Source: Methylococcales symbiont of Iophon sp. n. MRB-2018 (GTDB taxonomy: Bacteria > Pseudomonadota > Gammaproteobacteria > Methylococcales > Methylomonadaceae). Taken from it: a stretch of 64,000 bases of DNA. Location of the stretch: contig QPIL01000122.1 of NCBI GenBank assembly GCA_003666325.1, positions 1 through 64,000 on the forward strand, given 5' to 3'. Positions 42,907 through 50,758 of this stretch are shown piece after piece; position 1 is the first letter of the stretch, and each line of letters opens with the position of its first letter. The translations under genes and the position numbers were made by a program. The notes under the pieces were generated by a model. The model saw nothing but the letters and a program-made list of their open reading frames with translations, made no database searches and was not told the origin of the DNA.

Positions 42907-43150
42907 ATTACCAATAACAGTAAATCAATTGACAAAGAGTATAGATAAACACCCTACTCCTACACTATAAAATTGTGATAAACCTGCTTGTTTTACTTTT
43001 ATTCAATTATAAAAGAAAAATAGAGGTCAAACACACAGGTCTTTATTACAAACGCACTTATTTCAGTTCAAAACTTATACCTTTAAGTTTAACATAGTGC
43101 CTAATTTCATATACTTCAATCTTTAAGAAATTTCAACATAACTCTTAAAG

Positions 43151-45730
43151 TTATAGCAAATCATTCAGTTGAGCGTCTTGAACGACTTTAAAATCCGTAT
43201 CAATTGCCTCAAAATGCTTTACAGCACAAGAATTTTTATATTTTTCGCTATCCCTCAAATTTTGCAAATCATTCACAAATTTACTTTCTCTGACTAAATA
43301 CAATTTTTCTTGTTCATCCTCTTGCCACACAATCGCCCAATCGGGATTATAAGTACCAATCGGCGTGTCCACCACAAACCACGGTGGCATTTTTGCAAAG
43401 ACTTTGACATTCTCACTAGCATCTAAACTTTGGGCAAATTTCTTTTCACCATCGCTATCAAATATACTGTAATCATAAATAGACTTATCGGATGGCACAA
43501 TTTTGTCCTCATAAGTTTCAATATCGTTAAACAGCGACATACTCCAACAATCATCTACTTCGTGATATTGAATGCCATTTAGCAATTCGTCTTTTAGTGT
43601 GTGTTTAATAATCAAAGCCACGCCTCTAATAAAATCTTGTGGATTGTCAAACACGCTATTTAAACAATCAATACCTGCTAAAACACTCAAAATTGTGGCT
43701 TTGGTTAATCCAGTTTCTTGCTCTAATGCCGTTGTCAAATTCTGAATTTGATACTGCTTACTTATTCTACTGCCCACATTTTCACTACTATAAATACCTT
43801 GAATTTTGTCATCTTCCATCACTAAATTTTGCCGTTCAACCTTAATCATAGGCGGCTTAATTTCTAATTGCTCATCAATATTTTTAACTATTTTTATAAC
43901 TAAATCATCGCTATTAAGTTGCACATCATATTTAGTTTTATGTTTAATCTTTTTCCATAAAATCTTAAAATTCGCATCATTTGTGGCAAACTGTTTTTTA
44001 AACTTCACTGTTGTGCGTTTTTTCTGTGATGGCGGGGTTATGCCTTTCTGCCCCGATTCATCAAACTCAGTTTGCAAAGTGGATACATAATCTTGGTAAG
44101 ATTCATTCGGCACCACCACCAATTTATTAATACCGCTGTCATAAATCCGTGTGCCATTTTTATCCAAACACAGACGCATTCCACGTCCGATTTCTTGGCG
44201 TTTTTTCATCACAGAAAGGGTTTCATTCAAGGTGCAAATGGTAAAAATATTCGGATTATCCCAGCCCTCTTTTAATGTTGAGTGGGAAAAAATAAAACAA
44301 GTATCTTCACTAAAAGACAATAGCCGCTCTTTGTCCTTCATAATTAAATCATAAGTGGCTTTATCGCTTTTAGAATTGCCCTTGGTGTCTTTGTAATTTT
44401 TGCCAGTTTTAGAAAAATAACCATTATGCACCTGAGCAACTTGCTTGTTTTTAAAAAAATCTGAGGTGGATTTTAAGGCTTCAAATTCTGCTTCAAAAAT
44501 TTGTTTAATTAGCCCTTCCTCATCCACATAATTTTTGACTTTATCAATAAAAAATAACGATAAAACTTTAATTCCTGCGCCTAATTGCTTTTGTTTGGCA
44601 AAATGGTTTTTAATGGTTTCCCGAATTTGCACCCGAAAAATATCTGCCTTGTCTTCTGACTTGGTTTCAGTAACGCAATAAAACACACCACCAGTCAATT
44701 CCACGCCTTTTTCAGATATTTTTTCAATGTATAAATTTTGGTATTTGTCATTTTTGGTTTTTTGAAAAACACTGCTGCCTAACTTAAATAACAAAGTTTT
44801 AAAAATATATTCCCCAGTTTCTTGCTTCACTTCAACTTTAATATTGGCACTGGCTTGTTCGTTAAAATCCAATTTAACAATCTCAAAAGTGAAACTATTG
44901 GCATCATCTTTGACCACCGAAGCAATCTCAATTTTCTTAACCAAACCCTTGTTATAAGCAGTAAAAGGCGAGAGTGAATACACCAAGTTGTACAGGTTTT
45001 TATGGGTGGCAGAATAGCGTAATTTAAAAATGGCGTTGAGTTTACTCAGCGCCGATTTTGATAAATCACTTTCCATATTTTGTGGCTCGTCTAGCACCAA
45101 AATTGGCTGAGTTTGAGCAATAAACTCTATCATTTTGCCCTGCGTATCATCACGTCTGTCTTCATTGATAATATTATTATCCGAATTAAATGCTTGAATA
45201 CTCATTACCAAAATACTCAGCTCATTACTGCTGGAAAAATCCCTCAATAAACTAATTTTTCGCCGACTTTCACCTTCATAAGCAAACACAATACGATTGG
45301 TATTAAAACTTTTATAAAAATGCGATTGCGTGCTACGCAAGGTTTTCAGCACCCCTTCACGTACTGCCACAGACGGCACAATAATGATAAATTTAGACAG
45401 ACCATAACGCTGATGTAGTGTAAAAATCGTCTTTAAATAGACATAAGTTTTGCCCGTGCCAGTCTCCATTTCCACCGAAAAATCACGCAAATTCTGCTCG
45501 TCAATCTCTCTATCAGATTTGTCTAAATTACGCTTTTGAATGGCGGATAAATTGCGTGTAAGTTTGTCATTATCAATCAACAATTGATTAGCCACAATGC
45601 CAAAATGTCTGCCCCCAGAAAGGCTAAAACCCACATCATCCACATTGCCAATAAATTCATCGGCAAATAAATCCACCACCGCATCTACCGCATCAGTTTG
45701 ATAATCTAGGGTTTCATATTGGATTTTCAT
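43151..45730 (-). CDS. res: Type III restriction-modification system endonuclease subunit (Res)
   Basis: An 859-residue helicase-nuclease that cuts DNA after translocation between unmethylated sites. Walker A is GTGKT at 91-95 and the DEAD-like box is DEPQ at 214-217. Helicase motif VI is 'RQEIGRGMRLCLD'. A C-terminal PD-(D/E)XK nuclease has PD at 796-797 and ESK at 815-817. Its ATG overlaps the relE stop by 4 bp. Last gene of the six-gene operon that starts with mod. Confidence 0.93.
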   Translation of the reverse strand: MKIQYETLDYQTDAVDAVVDLFADEFIGNVDDVGFSLSGGRHFGIVANQLLIDNDKLTRNLSAIQKRNLDKSDREIDEQNLRDFSVEMETGTGKTYVYLKTIFTLHQRYGLSKFIIIVPSVAVREGVLKTLRSTQSHFYKSFNTNRIVFAYEGESRRKISLLRDFSSSNELSILVMSIQAFNSDNNIINEDRRDDTQGKMIEFIAQTQPILVLDEPQNMESDLSKSALSKLNAIFKLRYSATHKNLYNLVYSLSPFTAYNKGLVKKIEIASVVKDDANSFTFEIVKLDFNEQASANIKVEVKQETGEYIFKTLLFKLGSSVFQKTKNDKYQNLYIEKISEKGVELTGGVFYCVTETKSEDKADIFRVQIRETIKNHFAKQKQLGAGIKVLSLFFIDKVKNYVDEEGLIKQIFEAEFEALKSTSDFFKNKQVAQVHNGYFSKTGKNYKDTKGNSKSDKATYDLIMKDKERLLSFSEDTCFIFSHSTLKEGWDNPNIFTICTLNETLSVMKKRQEIGRGMRLCLDKNGTRIYDSGINKLVVVPNESYQDYVSTLQTEFDESGQKGITPPSQKKRTTVKFKKQFATNDANFKILWKKIKHKTKYDVQLNSDDLVIKIVKNIDEQLEIKPPMIKVERQNLVMEDDKIQGIYSSENVGSRISKQYQIQNLTTALEQETGLTKATILSVLAGIDCLNSVFDNPQDFIRGVALIIKHTLKDELLNGIQYHEVDDCWSMSLFNDIETYEDKIVPSDKSIYDYSIFDSDGEKKFAQSLDASENVKVFAKMPPWFVVDTPIGTYNPDWAIVWQEDEQEKLYLVRESKFVNDLQNLRDSEKYKNSCAVKHFEAIDTDFKVVQDAQLNDLL

Positions 45731-46020
45731 AAATCGCTTAATCTTAATAATCGTTCACTGCGATATATTCTGATAACACTAATCATTTTACCTTGATGCA
45801 AATAAACGATTCTAAAGGGGGGTTTTACTATTTCTCTAATTTTTTTATTATCAAATTCAGGCACAATTCTGCCAATTTCAGGATGATTTTTTAAGGTTTG
45901 CACGCTAGCAATAATTGCAGGAATAAAGCTTCTGCCCGTTTTTTCAACTCCTTGTTGTCGATAATAACTGATAATGCTGTCCATATCACCAGTTGCGGTT
46001 TTAGAAAATTCTATTTTCAC
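45727..46020 (-). CDS. RelE/ParE-family toxin
   Basis: A 97-residue protein: 'KIEFSKTATGDMDSIISYYR', 'HPEIGRIVPEFDNKKIREIV' and 'PPFRIVYLHQGKMISVIRIY' with a final 'RSERLLRLSDL', a normal RelE/ParE plasmid-stabilisation fold. It overlaps the antitoxin by 4 bp and res by 4 bp, so it is built into the restriction operon. Confidence 0.88.
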   Translation of the reverse strand: MKIEFSKTATGDMDSIISYYRQQGVEKTGRSFIPAIIASVQTLKNHPEIGRIVPEFDNKKIREIVKPPFRIVYLHQGKMISVIRIYRSERLLRLSDL

Positions 46021-46253
46021 AAACCAAATTGTTTTTTGACTGATTCTAAACTTTGTGTGTCGCCTTGTTTAATATCTATCAAGCCCACAACAATATCTCG
46101 CATAAAATGCTGTTGTTCATTGTTTTGCTGCTGTATAAAATGCTTAAGCTTTGATTTAGGCTCTGGGTAAACACTGTCTAACAATGATTCTGCCAATGCC
46201 ACTCGCTCATTCGCTGGCATTTTTATGGCTTCTTGAATTAAATTTTTGTTCAT
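46017..46253 (-). CDS. Addiction-module antitoxin
   Basis: A 78-residue partner of the RelE-like toxin. 'EAIKMPANERVALAESLLDS' is the typical N-terminus of the 'putative addiction module component' family. The helical C-terminal part probably wraps the toxin. Starts by a 4-bp ATGA overlap with the 46-codon gene upstream. Confidence 0.8.
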   Translation of the reverse strand: MNKNLIQEAIKMPANERVALAESLLDSVYPEPKSKLKHFIQQQNNEQQHFMRDIVVGLIDIKQGDTQSLESVKKQFGL

Positions 46254-46390
46254 TTTTTCTCCTTGTGTTGGTAGTTTTTTGCCATGATTTTAGCCTCAAG
46301 CAACGCCTGCCCATAATCATCCAGCCGTTCAAATTTATCAGTTTTATCCACTAAATCTAATAATTCTAGTTCTTCTTTATCTAATTTCAT
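46250..46390 (-). CDS. 46-residue small protein between OLD-like ATPase and antitoxin
   Basis: The frame translates MKLDKEELELLDLVDKTDKF and ends in MAKNYQHKEKK: acidic helical start, basic end. A GGAAGT ribosome-binding region precedes the ATG, and the stop overlaps the antitoxin start (ATGA). The overlap supports translation. It resembles the short acidic peptides next to antitoxins, but no family is recognised. Confidence 0.6.
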   Translation of the reverse strand: MKLDKEELELLDLVDKTDKFERLDDYGQALLEAKIMAKNYQHKEKK

Positions 46391-46413
46391 TTTTACTTCC
46401 TATTTTTTTTGGA

Positions 46414-48099
46414 TTATGATGCTTGTTTTTTAGCAATTGCATAAATAGAATCTAATTTTTGTTGAACTTCTTGGTCTATCTCATCCTTTTTAAGATATTT
46501 AATCAGTGTGTAATAATCACTTTTATTTAAAATTGGAATGGTGCTTGTTTTTTGACTATAAGCAGATAATATCTGTCTTAATGACTCAGATCCATTGGTT
46601 TTTTTATCAAAAACATCAGGCTCTTGCAAAACTTTCTTAGCTTGCTGAATAGTTGCAATAACCCCGTTCATATTATCAAAAATTGATTGTTCAAATAAGT
46701 CATTGCCGTCAGCATGAGATTGTTCTTTTGCTTTTGCGTAGCAGTTCAAAACCTCAGCATTACAGAAATAATTCTCTATTTCAGCCTTTCCCCACATTAT
46801 CTCCTGCAAAGAGTTATGTTCTTGTAATACATTGCTAATATTGTCAAAAATAGCAATGCCTTTCAAATCTGACTTTGCTTCCAGCAAGCCAAAAAAATGT
46901 TCTCTTGCTTTGTTAGGCTGATTGCCAACATAATGCACAAACACTCTATCTAAATAAGGTTTAACTGGGTGTTCTAATTTTTCTGCAAATTCTTGCAATA
47001 TGGCTAAATCCGTTGCCCCTTCCAAATATAACACCCAACCCGTTTGCTCAGCACTGGCATAATCACTCCAGCCAATATTTTTTAACGCTTTTTTGGTTTG
47101 TGAGTTTGATTGTATTTTGTGTACCTTGCCAATAAAGGCAATCGCCGAATCGTTATCAACCGCTTCCTCTATCAATACTTCTGAATGTGTGGCTAATATA
47201 ACTTGTGATTGTTGAGTTTTAGCCACTTTAGACAACAAACGATAAACCTCTCTTTGTCTTAAAATCTCTAAATGAGCATCAGGCTCGTCCAGCAAAATAA
47301 TAGATTTTGGCTTTTGTAATAAATAACTAAGCAACAATAAAACTTGCAATAAACCACGTCCTGCCATTGCTAAATCTAACTCAATATTATCTTGTTTATA
47401 ATATAAATTAATTGTTCCGTTGACAGAATCATTCACAGGATTTAAAAAATCAATACCAAATAATTGTTTCATATAACCAACAACTTTTTGCCAATTATCG
47501 GAGGATTGCTCGTATAGCATAATGCACAAATTTCTCAATACTTGTGCCGTTTGCCCCTCGCCAATCAGAACATTTACCCTGCCGGGCTGAATTCTAGGCT
47601 CAACAATAGACAGTCCCGACATGGCAGGTAAAAAACTAATATTAATATTACTGGCTATTTTTGTTGCTTCATCCTTGTAATCCAATAGAGGTTTGCTATA
47701 AATAATTTCCGAGTTATGACGGTAAAATTTCAAGCCATATTCCCATGGCTTATTATGCTTGTCAAAACCCATAAGAATAATTTCAATATCAATATTTTTT
47801 TTACTACCTATGCGAGTTTTTTTGTTATTCCATAATAAAATACTATCCACTACTGGCAGGGCAATCAAATCTCTTCTATTGATGGTTGCCCCTTGCCTAG
47901 AAAGCCGCTTACCAGCCTTTTTTGCATACCAGGTTTTAAAACCAATATGCCATAAACATAAAGCCTGCAAAGCGGTGGTTTTTCCTGAATTATTTGGACC
48001 AATAAAAGCAAATGGATTGTAGGTTAATTCATCAGATAACTTAATATCGACATCTTGTTTAAATCCTTTGAAATTTTTAATAATAATTCTGTTAATCAT
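46414..48099 (-). CDS. OLD-like ATPase with C-terminal TOPRIM-type domain
   Basis: A 561-residue protein. An SMC/ABC-like ATPase forms residues 1 to about 335: Walker A GPNNSGKT at 34-41, signature 'MAGRGLLQVLLLLSYL' near 246, Walker B LLDEPDAHL at 269-277, switch His H305. A TOPRIM-like segment follows, with Glu in 'YLEGATDLAIL' (E360) and 'IAIFDN' (D419). This is the OLD nuclease layout used in phage defence. The second metal Asp is not obvious, so nuclease activity is uncertain. It sits 9 bp after mod. Confidence 0.82.
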   Translation of the reverse strand: MINRIIIKNFKGFKQDVDIKLSDELTYNPFAFIGPNNSGKTTALQALCLWHIGFKTWYAKKAGKRLSRQGATINRRDLIALPVVDSILLWNNKKTRIGSKKNIDIEIILMGFDKHNKPWEYGLKFYRHNSEIIYSKPLLDYKDEATKIASNINISFLPAMSGLSIVEPRIQPGRVNVLIGEGQTAQVLRNLCIMLYEQSSDNWQKVVGYMKQLFGIDFLNPVNDSVNGTINLYYKQDNIELDLAMAGRGLLQVLLLLSYLLQKPKSIILLDEPDAHLEILRQREVYRLLSKVAKTQQSQVILATHSEVLIEEAVDNDSAIAFIGKVHKIQSNSQTKKALKNIGWSDYASAEQTGWVLYLEGATDLAILQEFAEKLEHPVKPYLDRVFVHYVGNQPNKAREHFFGLLEAKSDLKGIAIFDNISNVLQEHNSLQEIMWGKAEIENYFCNAEVLNCYAKAKEQSHADGNDLFEQSIFDNMNGVIATIQQAKKVLQEPDVFDKKTNGSESLRQILSAYSQKTSTIPILNKSDYYTLIKYLKKDEIDQEVQQKLDSIYAIAKKQAS

Positions 48100-48108
48100 A
48101 ATTAACTC

Positions 48109-49977
48109 CTAAATAACTCGTAAATTAAAATTACGGGAAAAATTAACCTTTTGGGTGTCGGTGAGGGCGTTGTCGAGGCATACCAAAATATCGTCTGTGG
48201 TTAATTTTAAGGTTTCTATGGTATCAGTGTTAATTTTTTTGACTAAAGTGATTATCAGTGTGCGTTCTAATTGTGTGTCAATAATGCGGTAAAAATCGCC
48301 GTTTTGCTCAATATTGCTGGTCAATGGGAAACCTTGTTTTAGGGCGATTTCATAGGCTAAATCTAGCGGGTCAAAGTTAGACGTTAATGGGGTTTTTATG
48401 GCAGATTTTTCCAACGCCAATAAAGCCTGTTCGTCCTCGCCATCGTAGGGCTGATTAACGGTGTAATGGCTGGGGGCGAGGGAAAAGACTTTAAAGCCTG
48501 TTGGGTAGTTATTTTTGTCAATGGCACGTTTTAGGCGTTCAATGCTGATTTGTGAAATGGTTTTATAGCCTGCTTTGGCGGCTTCTGATTTTTCATCCAC
48601 TGCCTCGGGGATTTGCACCAAAATAAATTTTCGATTGCCCTTGTCTTGTTTATTTAAGTCCATTACTGCATGCCCTGTGGTGGCACTGCCTGCGAAAAAG
48701 TCTAGGACAATATCGTTTTCATTTGTTCCCATTTCAACCATTCTTTTTATTAAACCTAGTGGTTTTGGAAAATCGAAATACTTACCATTAAGTAGTTCTT
48801 TGATTAACAATGTTCCCTTTTCTGTATTAACTTCCTTGTCCCGCCAAACAGACCTAGCCATAGCGGTTTTTTCTCTATATTTTTCACAAATTTGCCATCC
48901 GCCATCTTTCATCGCCTTGCCAATTATATTAATATTTAACTGTTTTAATGCCTTAGGCTTGCCCCATCTCCAAACAGTATTTAAACCTTGAGAGACTTTT
49001 GGGTAAAGTTCAATCCAGTCTTTTTTCTTATCTAAAGATATTTCAAAAAAACCATTTTCGTCTTTATTGTTTGAATTTATATAGAATGGGTAATAAAGAT
49101 TTGGTCTATTCTTTGAATTAAATGCTATATTTCTATTTCTCAATTCTCTAATATCAAACTCACCGATTTCATCATGAAAGGCAAAAACTTTTTCATGGTC
49201 TATTAGGTTATTCATTTCAAACGCATCTATTTTTGAAAACACAAGTAAATTGTCGTGCATTCTTGCTATACCGCCATAATCTCTACCTCTAGGATTTCCA
49301 ACAACAGTGATATTGCCTAAAAAATTCTCCTCCCCAAACACCTCATTCATCAACATTTTTAAATGGTGTTGTTCGTTGTCGTCAATGCTGATGAAAATCA
49401 CGCCATCGTCTTTTAACAGTTGTTTAGCAAGGAAAAGTCGCGGATACATCATACTCAGCCATTGTGAATGGTATCTACCGTGGGCATCAGAATTGGTTTC
49501 TAACTTGATGCCGTTCTTACTTGCGCCAATACGCTCAAAATAATCACTTTTGCCTTCGGTAAAATTGTCTTTGTAGATGAAATCCTTGCCGGTGTTGTAA
49601 GGCGGGTCGATGTAAATCATCTTGATTTTATGGTGATAATGCTTTTGCAAGAGTTTTAGCACTTCAAGATTGTCGCCCTCAATAAATAAATTATCGCTGT
49701 TGTCAAAATCCACTGAGGCAGATTTTTGTGGCTTGAGGGTGGCAAAACTGGGGCGAGAAATAGCCTTAAAAGCCTCATTTTTGCCCGCCCAAGAAAAGGC
49801 GTAGCGGTCTTTGTCGTCTGCTAGTGCGTCTTTATCTGCTAAAAACTGCTTGAGTGCATCAAAATTAATTTTACCTTCGCTAACAAACTGTGGAAATAAG
49901 GCACTGAATTTGGCTAATTCATCGGCAAATATATCTTTTGAGGTAGCTGTTACTTTTTTGATATTGTTGTTTGACAT
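48109..49977 (-). CDS. mod: Type III restriction-modification system methyltransferase (Mod)
   Basis: A 622-residue beta-class adenine-N6 methyltransferase. Catalytic motif IV DPPY is at 124-127 (in 'IYIDPPYNTGKDFIY') and comes before SAM motif I 'DFFAGSATTGHAV' in the C-terminal half. The region between (about 210-400) is the target-recognition part and fixes the DNA site. First gene of the operon; the 169 bp upstream must hold the promoter. Confidence 0.94.
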   Translation of the reverse strand: MSNNNIKKVTATSKDIFADELAKFSALFPQFVSEGKINFDALKQFLADKDALADDKDRYAFSWAGKNEAFKAISRPSFATLKPQKSASVDFDNSDNLFIEGDNLEVLKLLQKHYHHKIKMIYIDPPYNTGKDFIYKDNFTEGKSDYFERIGASKNGIKLETNSDAHGRYHSQWLSMMYPRLFLAKQLLKDDGVIFISIDDNEQHHLKMLMNEVFGEENFLGNITVVGNPRGRDYGGIARMHDNLLVFSKIDAFEMNNLIDHEKVFAFHDEIGEFDIRELRNRNIAFNSKNRPNLYYPFYINSNNKDENGFFEISLDKKKDWIELYPKVSQGLNTVWRWGKPKALKQLNINIIGKAMKDGGWQICEKYREKTAMARSVWRDKEVNTEKGTLLIKELLNGKYFDFPKPLGLIKRMVEMGTNENDIVLDFFAGSATTGHAVMDLNKQDKGNRKFILVQIPEAVDEKSEAAKAGYKTISQISIERLKRAIDKNNYPTGFKVFSLAPSHYTVNQPYDGEDEQALLALEKSAIKTPLTSNFDPLDLAYEIALKQGFPLTSNIEQNGDFYRIIDTQLERTLIITLVKKINTDTIETLKLTTDDILVCLDNALTDTQKVNFSRNFNLRVI

Positions 49978-50146
49978 ATTAAATCGTTCATTGTTATTTT
50001 CTGAATTTTCCTCATTTAACCCTATAAAAATTGGAGTTATTCCAGAGGTGGTAAAACTTGACAGTTACTGCGTGGCTAAGACAAGTAAATCGCTCAAATA
50101 TGAGCAACACTCTTTCAAGCATAGAATAGCTGGTAAATAATGTGAA

Positions 50147-50758
50147 CTAAATGTTGTTAATAGGTGATTTATCAGGGTTTAGGTTGTGAAATTGCAGTTG
50201 AATAAAAGTATTTTCTTTATCTTGAAAGTATTGGAAACGGGTTAAACTTGCATGATCAACTTGTAAATTGAATATTTTATTAATAGGTAAGTCAAGCAAT
50301 AAAGCAAACAAGGCGCGAATGACACCGCTATGGGTTATGACTAAAATATGTTTGCCAGTGTGTTGTTTGAGTAGACTTTCCCATGCGAGGTTGATTCTAG
50401 CGATAAATTCTGTAAACGCTTCAGCATTCTTTGGCGTGTATTTAACAGGGTCTTGGTAGAATAAAAGTAATTCTGTTGCGTCTATTTGTGTCGCTGTTTT
50501 TCCTTCCCAGTCACCAAAATGAATTTCTTGCCAATCGGCTTCAATGATAAGCGGTGTATTATTTTGTTGGCTTATATTGTACGCAAATTTACTGCACCGA
50601 AGTAGAGGAGAGCTGATAATCTGATCCCAGCACCGATTAGCAACCGTATTGTGCATTTGTTGCCAACCTGATTGACTGAGTAGATCATCGGTACTGCCTC
50701 GGTAATAAGAACCGCCTATCACTTCACCATGGCGAAGAAAATCAACAGTGGTTTGCAT
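50147..50758 (-). CDS. Histidine phosphatase family protein
   Basis: A 203-residue phosphoglycerate-mutase-like phosphatase. The catalytic 'FLRHGEVIGGSYYRGSTDDL' start and 'ILVITHSGVIRALFALLL' give the two histidines. Closest by eye to CobC-type alpha-ribazole phosphatases, but no cobalamin genes are near, so the substrate is open. It lies 22 bp after argH on the same strand. Confidence 0.88.
   Translation of the reverse strand: MQTTVDFLRHGEVIGGSYYRGSTDDLLSQSGWQQMHNTVANRCWDQIISSPLLRCSKFAYNISQQNNTPLIIEADWQEIHFGDWEGKTATQIDATELLLFYQDPVKYTPKNAEAFTEFIARINLAWESLLKQHTGKHILVITHSGVIRALFALLLDLPINKIFNLQVDHASLTRFQYFQDKENTFIQLQFHNLNPDKSPINNI

What the first reader, a model, noticed from the sequence alone, without database searches (positions are those of the whole stretch)
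43151..49977. Type III restriction operon with an OLD-like ATPase, a small protein and a toxin-antitoxin pair built in between mod and res
Order on the minus strand: mod, OLD-like ATPase/TOPRIM, 46-codon gene, antitoxin, RelE-like toxin, res. The last four genes overlap by 4-bp ATGA junctions, and mod to OLD is 9 bp, so expression must be coupled. Known: mod and res alone make a type III system, and OLD nucleases act in phage defence. Inference: the toxin may punish loss of the methylase or res, and the OLD protein may add a second defence layer. The combined six-gene arrangement could be a composite system.
Basis: partly seen in the sequence, partly recalled or inferred. Interest (0 to 1): 0.72.

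Follow-up and report, generated by a model that had tools for sequence, protein, structure and literature searches.

The report
Restriction operon with swappable defence cargo
A methane-oxidising bacterium carries a mobile type III restriction-modification operon whose mod-res junction, used across many bacteria as a slot for exchangeable toxin or defence genes, here holds an ATPase-TOPRIM defence gene, a toxin-antitoxin pair and a fragment of a second antitoxin.

Summary
The six genes are real and exactly where reported. Mod and Res are an intact type III pair. The "OLD-like" protein is an intact ABC-ATPase with a C-terminal TOPRIM-like domain. The "RelE-like" toxin is ParE family. The 46-codon gene is the N-terminal half of a CopG antitoxin (intact paralogue plus BrnT-like toxin in a sister genome). 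The six-gene order was found nowhere else. A same-genus genome has mod-ATPase-res at another site, with the toxin deleted and both antitoxins truncated. The next-closest copies (Res 73% and 60%) carry other genes between mod and res. In a survey, the mod-res gap is bimodal: 30 bp or less, or 520-3,055 bp. In a phylum-wide draw of 32 operons, 15 are compact and 14 loaded; among near relatives 28 of 37 are loaded. Cargo recurs: RhuM, Fic/Doc, AlbA_2, ABC-ATPases, MNT/HEPN, PIN/RelE/HicA pairs. Best reading: a mobile type III operon with an exchangeable cargo slot. The ATPase-TOPRIM gene is probably an RM-coupled second defence layer (mechanism inferred). The toxin-antitoxin pair is dispensable, so "toxin punishes loss of mod/res" is not supported as essential. 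Toxins embedded in RM operons are known; I found no paper describing this slot in type III operons.

The parts
48109..49977 (-). mod: type III beta-class DNA methyltransferase (622 aa). DPPYNTG and FxGxxTTG motifs intact; central region (about residues 200-420) is the variable target-recognition part
   Evidence: MTase_III 2e-169; central region 15-25% identical to G119/G529 while the ends are mostly 80-97% to G119
46414..48099 (-). ABC-type ATPase with C-terminal TOPRIM-like domain (561 aa), OLD/PARIS-like but its own subfamily
   Evidence: 47 homologues; invariant E360, D364, D419, E440, E442, N443, numbering of the 561-aa protein; pLDDT 86.7; best solved match OLD nuclease 6p74, E 5e-14
46250..46390 (-). 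46-codon remnant: N-terminal half of a CopG-type antitoxin, ribbon-helix-helix part and partner toxin missing
   Evidence: 82% to G119:C11:42116; full-length 90-aa paralogue with toxin upstream; CopG_antitoxin 4e-4 and BrnT_toxin 2e-4, both below Pfam cut-off
46017..46253 (-). antitoxin of the ParE pair: Unstab_antitox-like N-terminus, C-terminal peptide shared with Phd-type antitoxins
   Evidence: PF09720 0.0097, below cut-off; C-terminal 37 aa align to Phd/ParE antitoxins of relatives; those are PhdYeFM
45727..46020 (-). ParE-family toxin (97 aa, GTG start)
43151..45730 (-). res: type III helicase-endonuclease (859 aa), Walker A GTGKT and C-terminal RE_endonuc domain (PD...ESK) intact
   Evidence: REase_III 8e-221
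45731..48108 (-). the mod-res cargo slot: 2378 bp between the mod stop and the res start, occupied in this genome by ATPase + antitoxin remnant + TA
43125..50157 (.). approximate extent of the acquired cassette: outside these points the DNA is about 95% identical to G119, where the two flanks lie on different contigs (C60, C63) and the RM operon lies elsewhere (C11)

Best explanation
This is a horizontally mobile type III restriction-modification operon of a methanotrophic gammaproteobacterium (PmoA present). Its mod-res junction is an exchangeable cargo slot. Mod methylates and, with Res, cuts unmethylated invading DNA. Between mod and res sit an ATPase-TOPRIM protein and a small TA region. 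The most likely role of the ATPase-TOPRIM protein is a second defence layer tied to the RM enzyme: co-expressed with Mod and Res, silent while the Mod-Res complex is intact or phage is absent, and cutting nucleic acid when phage DNA or an anti-restriction protein appears, in the manner of PARIS, OLD or PrrC. The ParE TA pair and the CopG-antitoxin fragment are small insertions into the same slot. The TA may have stabilised the cassette but is dispensable: a sister copy deleted the toxin exactly between short TGAAAAT repeats at the toxin and res starts. Shown here: gene content, intact motifs, tight junctions, mobility, slot variability, purifying selection on mod, ATPase and res, decay of the TA in the sister. 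Inferred: activation trigger, nucleolytic target, and any physical contact with Mod or Res.
For: Slot variability: closest copies hold different cargo: G119 ATPase + TA remnants, G529 a 314-aa protein with no Pfam match, G401 HAD hydrolase + RelB/YafQ. The mod-res gap is bimodal in 69 operons: 23 at 30 bp or less, 42 at 521 bp or more, 4 between. Cargo classes recur: RhuM, Fic, Fic/Doc + 341-aa protein, AlbA_2, OLD with PF20469, AAA_21 + DUF4276, YhcG, PDDEXK_3, PIN, HicA, YafQ. An independently annotated plasmid (Rhizobium p7) has mod-DUF262-res with DUF262 overlapping res by 4 bp. Mobility: found in 2 of 9 genus members, at different sites. ATPase retained and constrained (dN/dS 0.20; mod 0.21, res 0.12). 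Relatives of the ATPase sit beside type III-like methylase and/or helicase genes in about 9 of 80 loci across phyla. PADLOC best hits are AriA and NsnB, with fused AriAB aligned across the TOPRIM part. G119 res starts with the GTG that was the toxin start, with an antitoxin C-terminus still upstream: a deletion scar.
Against: No functional or expression data. The ATPase family is mostly stand-alone (about 70 of 80 loci), so it can work without RM. The second acidic residue of the TOPRIM DxD motif is absent in the window protein (DNIS), so catalysis is uncertain. Structural matches are domain-level only (TM about 0.3-0.4). Sampled loci are not phylogenetically independent; ORFs are mechanical.
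Confidence: 0.6

Rival explanations
1. One reading: a true six-gene composite system in which the toxin kills cells that lose the methylase or res, so TA, ATPase and RM are one functional unit.
For: Overlapping start/stop junctions throughout. Related Phd-ParE pairs also sit directly before cas1 in the type I-E CRISPR loci of five relatives, which would fit TA pairs guarding defence operons.
Against: Six-gene order not found again. G119 keeps mod, ATPase and res without toxin. The 46-aa gene is a fragment. The TA-CRISPR pairs could equally be passengers.
Confidence: 0.1
2. The slot content is mere passenger insertion: the mod-res junction tolerates insertion because mod and res need not be tightly coupled, and ATPase and TA have no link to RM function.
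For: Cargo differs between near copies; the ATPase family is mostly stand-alone; TA decays without loss of RM.
Against: Gap distribution is bimodal and cargo is nearly restricted to toxin/defence families on the coding strand, often with 4-bp overlaps to res; random insertion would be expected to bring metabolic genes, transposases and both orientations. ATPase is under purifying selection at a level like mod.
Confidence: 0.25
3. The ATPase-TOPRIM protein is an extra subunit of the restriction enzyme itself (for example a regulator of Res nuclease or translocase activity), not a separate defence layer.
For: It directly follows mod with a 9-bp spacer and is kept in the sister copy; extra ATPase genes near type III mod/res are known (PMC8259958, a different SF2 helicase family located 5' of mod).
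Against: Close Res homologues without it carry quite different cargo or none, so Mod-Res appears to persist without it. Its relatives are mostly stand-alone.
Confidence: 0.05

Closest known systems
Canonical type III RM systems (EcoP1I, EcoP15I, HinfIII)
   Same: Intact beta-class Mod and helicase-endonuclease Res in mod-res order
   Different: Canonical pairs have mod and res adjacent; here 2.4 kb of defence/toxin genes lie between them
Type III m4C systems with an extra SF2 helicase-like ATPase (Eco86II, BspHIV; PMC8259958)
   Same: Type III operon with an additional ATPase gene of unknown role
   Different: There the extra gene is an SF2 helicase 5' of mod; here it is an ABC-ATPase-TOPRIM protein between mod and res
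PrrC in EcoprrI and RhuM/Doc/HEPN genes in RM operons (PMC3710099, PMC12707154)
   Same: Toxin or effector genes embedded in an RM operon as second-line defence; same cargo types (RhuM, Fic/Doc) appear in the type III slot surveyed here
   Different: PrrC is in a type I operon; the window cargo is ATPase-TOPRIM + ParE TA, with no HEPN nuclease
PARIS (AriA/AriB, fused AriAB)
   Same: ABC ATPase plus TOPRIM-like domain in one chain; PADLOC AriA 3e-22 and fused AriAB 2e-14, the latter spanning the TOPRIM region
   Different: Low scores; Pfam DUF4435 not matched; trigger and target unknown
OLD nucleases / Gabija GajA / Septu-retron PtuA
   Same: OLD-superfamily ABC ATPase; best solved structure match OLD 6p74
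   Different: No PF20469 OLD TOPRIM match; no GajB or PtuB partner gene; different family by sequence

Membership tests
Type III restriction-modification | beta-class Mod with DPPY and FxGxG motifs | tested here: met
   motifs read in sequence
Type III restriction-modification | Res with SF2 helicase and C-terminal endonuclease domain | tested here: met
   ResIII 5.8e-16, RE_endonuc 3.5e-34; REase_III 8e-221
Type III restriction-modification | mod and res in one operon, same strand | tested here: met
   separated by 2.4 kb of co-directional cargo
Type III restriction-modification | site-specific methylation and ATP-dependent cleavage | not testable with these tools
   needs methylome and restriction assay
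OLD nuclease | ABC ATPase (AAA_15/AAA_21) N-terminal domain | tested here: met
   47 of 47 homologues
OLD nuclease | OLD-type TOPRIM domain (PF20469) | tested here: not met
   no match in any of 47 members at 1e-3, while the L151 cargo protein matches at 4e-15
OLD nuclease | TOPRIM-like fold and acidic residues | tested here: inconclusive
   model has the strand-helix order with E360, D364, D419 and ExEN invariant, but DNIS lacks the second Asp; top fold match is OLD
PARIS (fused AriAB) | AriA ATPase and AriB TOPRIM/DUF4435 parts | tested here: inconclusive
   PADLOC AriAB 51 bits over residues 265-503; no Pfam DUF4435 match
PARIS (fused AriAB) | activated by anti-restriction proteins, cleaves tRNA-Lys | not testable with these tools
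   needs phage and Ocr assays
parDE/relBE type II TA | ParE/RelE-superfamily toxin | tested here: met
   PF05016 50.6 bits above cut-off
parDE/relBE type II TA | cognate antitoxin gene directly upstream | tested here: met
   4-bp overlap; C-terminal peptide shared with Phd-type antitoxins of related ParE pairs; N-terminal PF09720 match is below cut-off
BrnT/CopG TA (46-codon gene) | complete antitoxin with ribbon-helix-helix and partner toxin | tested here: not met
   only the N-terminal half present; full pair only in G119:C11:42 kb

The most novel reading that the evidence does not exclude
The mod-res junction of type III RM operons is a general, dedicated slot for guard cassettes: unrelated toxins and ATPase effectors (RhuM, Fic/Doc, AlbA_2, OLD-like, PARIS-like, TA) are exchanged there because expression between mod and res puts them under control of the Mod-Res complex, and they fire when that complex is lost or inhibited. 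The window operon would be the ATPase-TOPRIM version.
Probability: 0.3. Interest if true: 0.75.

Novelty: new variant of a known kind. Interest (0 to 1): 0.5.

Why it matters
Toxins embedded in type I RM operons (PrrC) led to the idea that bacteria guard their restriction enzymes against phage inhibitors. If nearly half of type III operons also carry an exchangeable toxin or effector between mod and res, guarding of RM may be far more general, and the slot becomes a place to look for new defence genes: several surveyed loci hold unannotated proteins there (the 314-aa gene of G529, the 341-aa partner of Fic/Doc). It also gives a clean comparative test, because close Mod-Res pairs exist with, without, or with different cargo.

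Tried and rejected
(1) Search for the identical six-gene order: not seen by ATPase in 301 genomes of the order, by Res in 201 of the family and 369 of the class, or in plasmids and E. coli genomes. (2) Filing the ATPase as an OLD nuclease: rejected as a strict claim, no PF20469. (3) The idea that the 46-codon gene is a new small regulator: rejected, it is an antitoxin fragment. (4) A helicase-methylase-ATPase system recalled from memory (PADLOC 'HMA') for the ATPase relatives next to methylases: the helicases in L030, L046 and L072 gave no PADLOC hit at 1e-10, so not filed. (5) Internal promoters and terminators: scan no better than shuffles. (6) Repeats flanking the cassette: no convincing long direct or inverted repeats. 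(7) Literature on type III cargo between mod and res: no paper found in the open library; subscription papers and REBASE are not covered, so novelty of the slot is provisional. (8) Viral fold library: only general ABC/SMC-like matches.
Full report
OBSERVATION. All six ORFs are present exactly as described. The mod stop and ATPase start are separated by 9 bp. The 46-codon ORF, antitoxin, toxin and res are joined by 4-bp overlaps (ATGA, GTGA, ATGA). Mod is a type III beta-class methyltransferase (PADLOC MTase_III 2e-169) and Res a full helicase-endonuclease (REase_III 8e-221; RE_endonuc 3.5e-34). The toxin is ParE family (3e-13). The antitoxin matches Unstab_antitox only weakly. The 46-codon ORF matches nothing in Pfam, NCBIfam or PADLOC.

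HOST AND MOBILITY. The genome (2.09 Mb, 123 contigs) contains a PmoA gene, so the host is a methanotroph. Only two of nine genomes of the genus hold this RM operon. In the second, G119, the operon is on contig C11 next to a prfC-like gene. The two window flanks, each about 95% identical to G119 DNA, lie there on contigs C60 and C63. The cassette (about 43125-50157) is therefore a mobile unit.

WHAT THE SISTER COPY SHOWS. G119 has mod-ATPase-res with Res 92% and ATPase 80% identical; the Mod ends are mostly 80-97% identical but the Mod centre only 15-25%: the target-recognition part has been exchanged. ATPase, mod and res are under purifying selection (dN/dS 0.20, 0.21, 0.12). The TA is decayed. 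One deletion runs from the 46-codon gene into the antitoxin. A second removes exactly the toxin, between the repeat TGAAAAT at the toxin start and the same repeat at the res start. As a result G119 res begins with the GTG that was the toxin start, and a piece of antitoxin remains upstream without its toxin. This supports loss of the toxin rather than later gain in the window, and shows the toxin is not needed to keep the operon.

THE 46-CODON GENE. G119 also has, about 19 kb away, a 90-aa protein 82% identical to it over 45 residues that continues into a ribbon-helix-helix-like segment, with a 95-aa BrnT-like toxin gene overlapping upstream. Pfam matches are CopG_antitoxin (4e-4) and BrnT_toxin (2e-4), both below cut-off. 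The 46-codon gene is thus the N-terminal half of such an antitoxin.

THE ATPASE. Residues 1-340 are an intact ABC ATPase (Walker A GPNNSGKTT, Walker B ILLDEPDAHLE, H-loop ATHSE). Residues from about 345 have TOPRIM-like strand-helix order with invariant E360, D364, D419, E440, E442 and N443 in 47 homologues; the model has pLDDT 86.7. The window protein has DNIS where most relatives have DRLD. Pfam OLD TOPRIM (PF20469) is not matched by any member. PADLOC ranks AriA and NsnB first and aligns fused AriAB across the TOPRIM part. The best solved fold is OLD 6p74 (E 5e-14), then retron/Septu PtuA and GajA. I call it an OLD-superfamily, PARIS-like ATPase-TOPRIM protein of its own subfamily. Relatives at about 42-48% identity occur in many phyla, mostly stand-alone, with about nine of 80 loci next to type III-like methylase and/or helicase genes.

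THE MOD-RES SLOT. I extracted Res homologues of the family and class and an HMM-based draw over the phylum and measured the mod-res interval. In 69 operons with mod upstream, 23 gaps are 30 bp or less, 42 are 521-3,055 bp, and four lie between. In the phylum draw alone: 15 compact, 14 loaded, 3 between, of 32. Among near relatives: 8 compact, 28 loaded, 1 between, of 37. The cargo is almost always on the coding strand and of toxin or defence type: RhuM (L140, L165, L179, L181, L182, L185, L215), Fic (L152, L153, L168, L190, L202), Fic/Doc with a 341-aa partner (L154, L157, L160, L180), AlbA_2 (L141, L196, L198), OLD with PF20469 (L151), AAA_21 with DUF4276 (L155, similar L164, L173), YhcG (L161), PDDEXK_3 (L142), UvrD-like (L162), PIN toxins (L156, L158, L159, L163, L214), HicA (L150), RelB-YafQ (L137), MNT/HEPN-like (L186, L203, L204), unknown (L136, L188, L201) (assignments for loci not scanned with Pfam are by sequence similarity or inspection). 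The two nearest outgroup copies carry different cargo between conserved mod and res genes: G529 (Res 73%) a 314-aa protein, with near-identical mod end and res start, and G401 (Res 60%) a HAD hydrolase plus RelB-YafQ. Independently annotated plasmids show both states: compact in E. coli, Enterococcus and Cupriavidus, mod-DUF262-res in Rhizobium p7, extra methyltransferase genes in Lactococcus.

TA IN OTHER DEFENCE OPERONS. The nearest relatives of the window toxin (about 43-54% identity) come with Phd-type antitoxins whose C-terminal peptide resembles the window antitoxin. In five genomes of the family (L218, L220, L223, L225, L226) the pair lies directly before a type I-E cas1, and in L225 after cas6e. 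The same TA kind has thus entered two kinds of defence operon. Guarding and passenger status both fit.

MECHANISM. Shown: intact RM, intact ATPase, tight junctions, mobility, exchangeable slot, TA dispensability. Inferred: the ATPase-TOPRIM protein is a second defence layer whose expression, and perhaps activity, is tied to Mod-Res. The analogy is PrrC in EcoprrI, where inhibition of the RM enzyme releases a tRNA nuclease, and PARIS, which senses anti-restriction proteins (both reviewed in PMC12707154; RM-embedded RhuM/Doc/HEPN in PMC3710099). Whether this ATPase senses Mod-Res, a phage inhibitor or phage DNA is open.

LIMITS. Sampled operons are not independent; ORF calling is mechanical; some contigs end inside the region; the literature library lacks subscription journals, preprints and REBASE, so the slot may be known to specialists.

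Noticed in passing
L218, L220, L223, L225, L226 (G092, G008, G086, G024, G036): Phd-ParE toxin-antitoxin pairs related to the window pair lie directly upstream of cas1e (in L225 between cas6e and cas1e) of type I-E CRISPR loci.
   Followed up: partly
L136 4319-5263 (-) (G529): 314-aa protein without Pfam or NCBIfam match occupies the mod-res slot of the closest copy outside the genus; candidate new defence gene.
   Followed up: partly
L154, L157, L160, L180 mod-res slot: A conserved 341-aa protein (no Pfam match for the L154 copy) is paired with a 146-151-aa Fic/Doc protein between mod and res; looks like an unnamed two-gene module.
   Followed up: partly
L030, L034, L046, L072, L077: Relatives of the window ATPase sit with a large type III-like methylase (PDLC03632 in L030, L046, L072) and a helicase of about 1000 aa; the helicases tested (L030, L046, L072) match no PADLOC model at 1e-10. 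Possible separate helicase-ATPase-methylase system.
   Followed up: partly
window 43125 and 50157: The window joins, across the RM cassette, two flanks that lie on different contigs in the same-genus genome G119, so acquisition coincided with or followed a rearrangement.
   Followed up: partly
L139, L144, L145, L146, L147: A group of type III loci has reversed order, res before mod; in four of them (L144-L147) res is preceded by conserved-size genes of about 495-498 aa and 147-160 aa.
   Followed up: no
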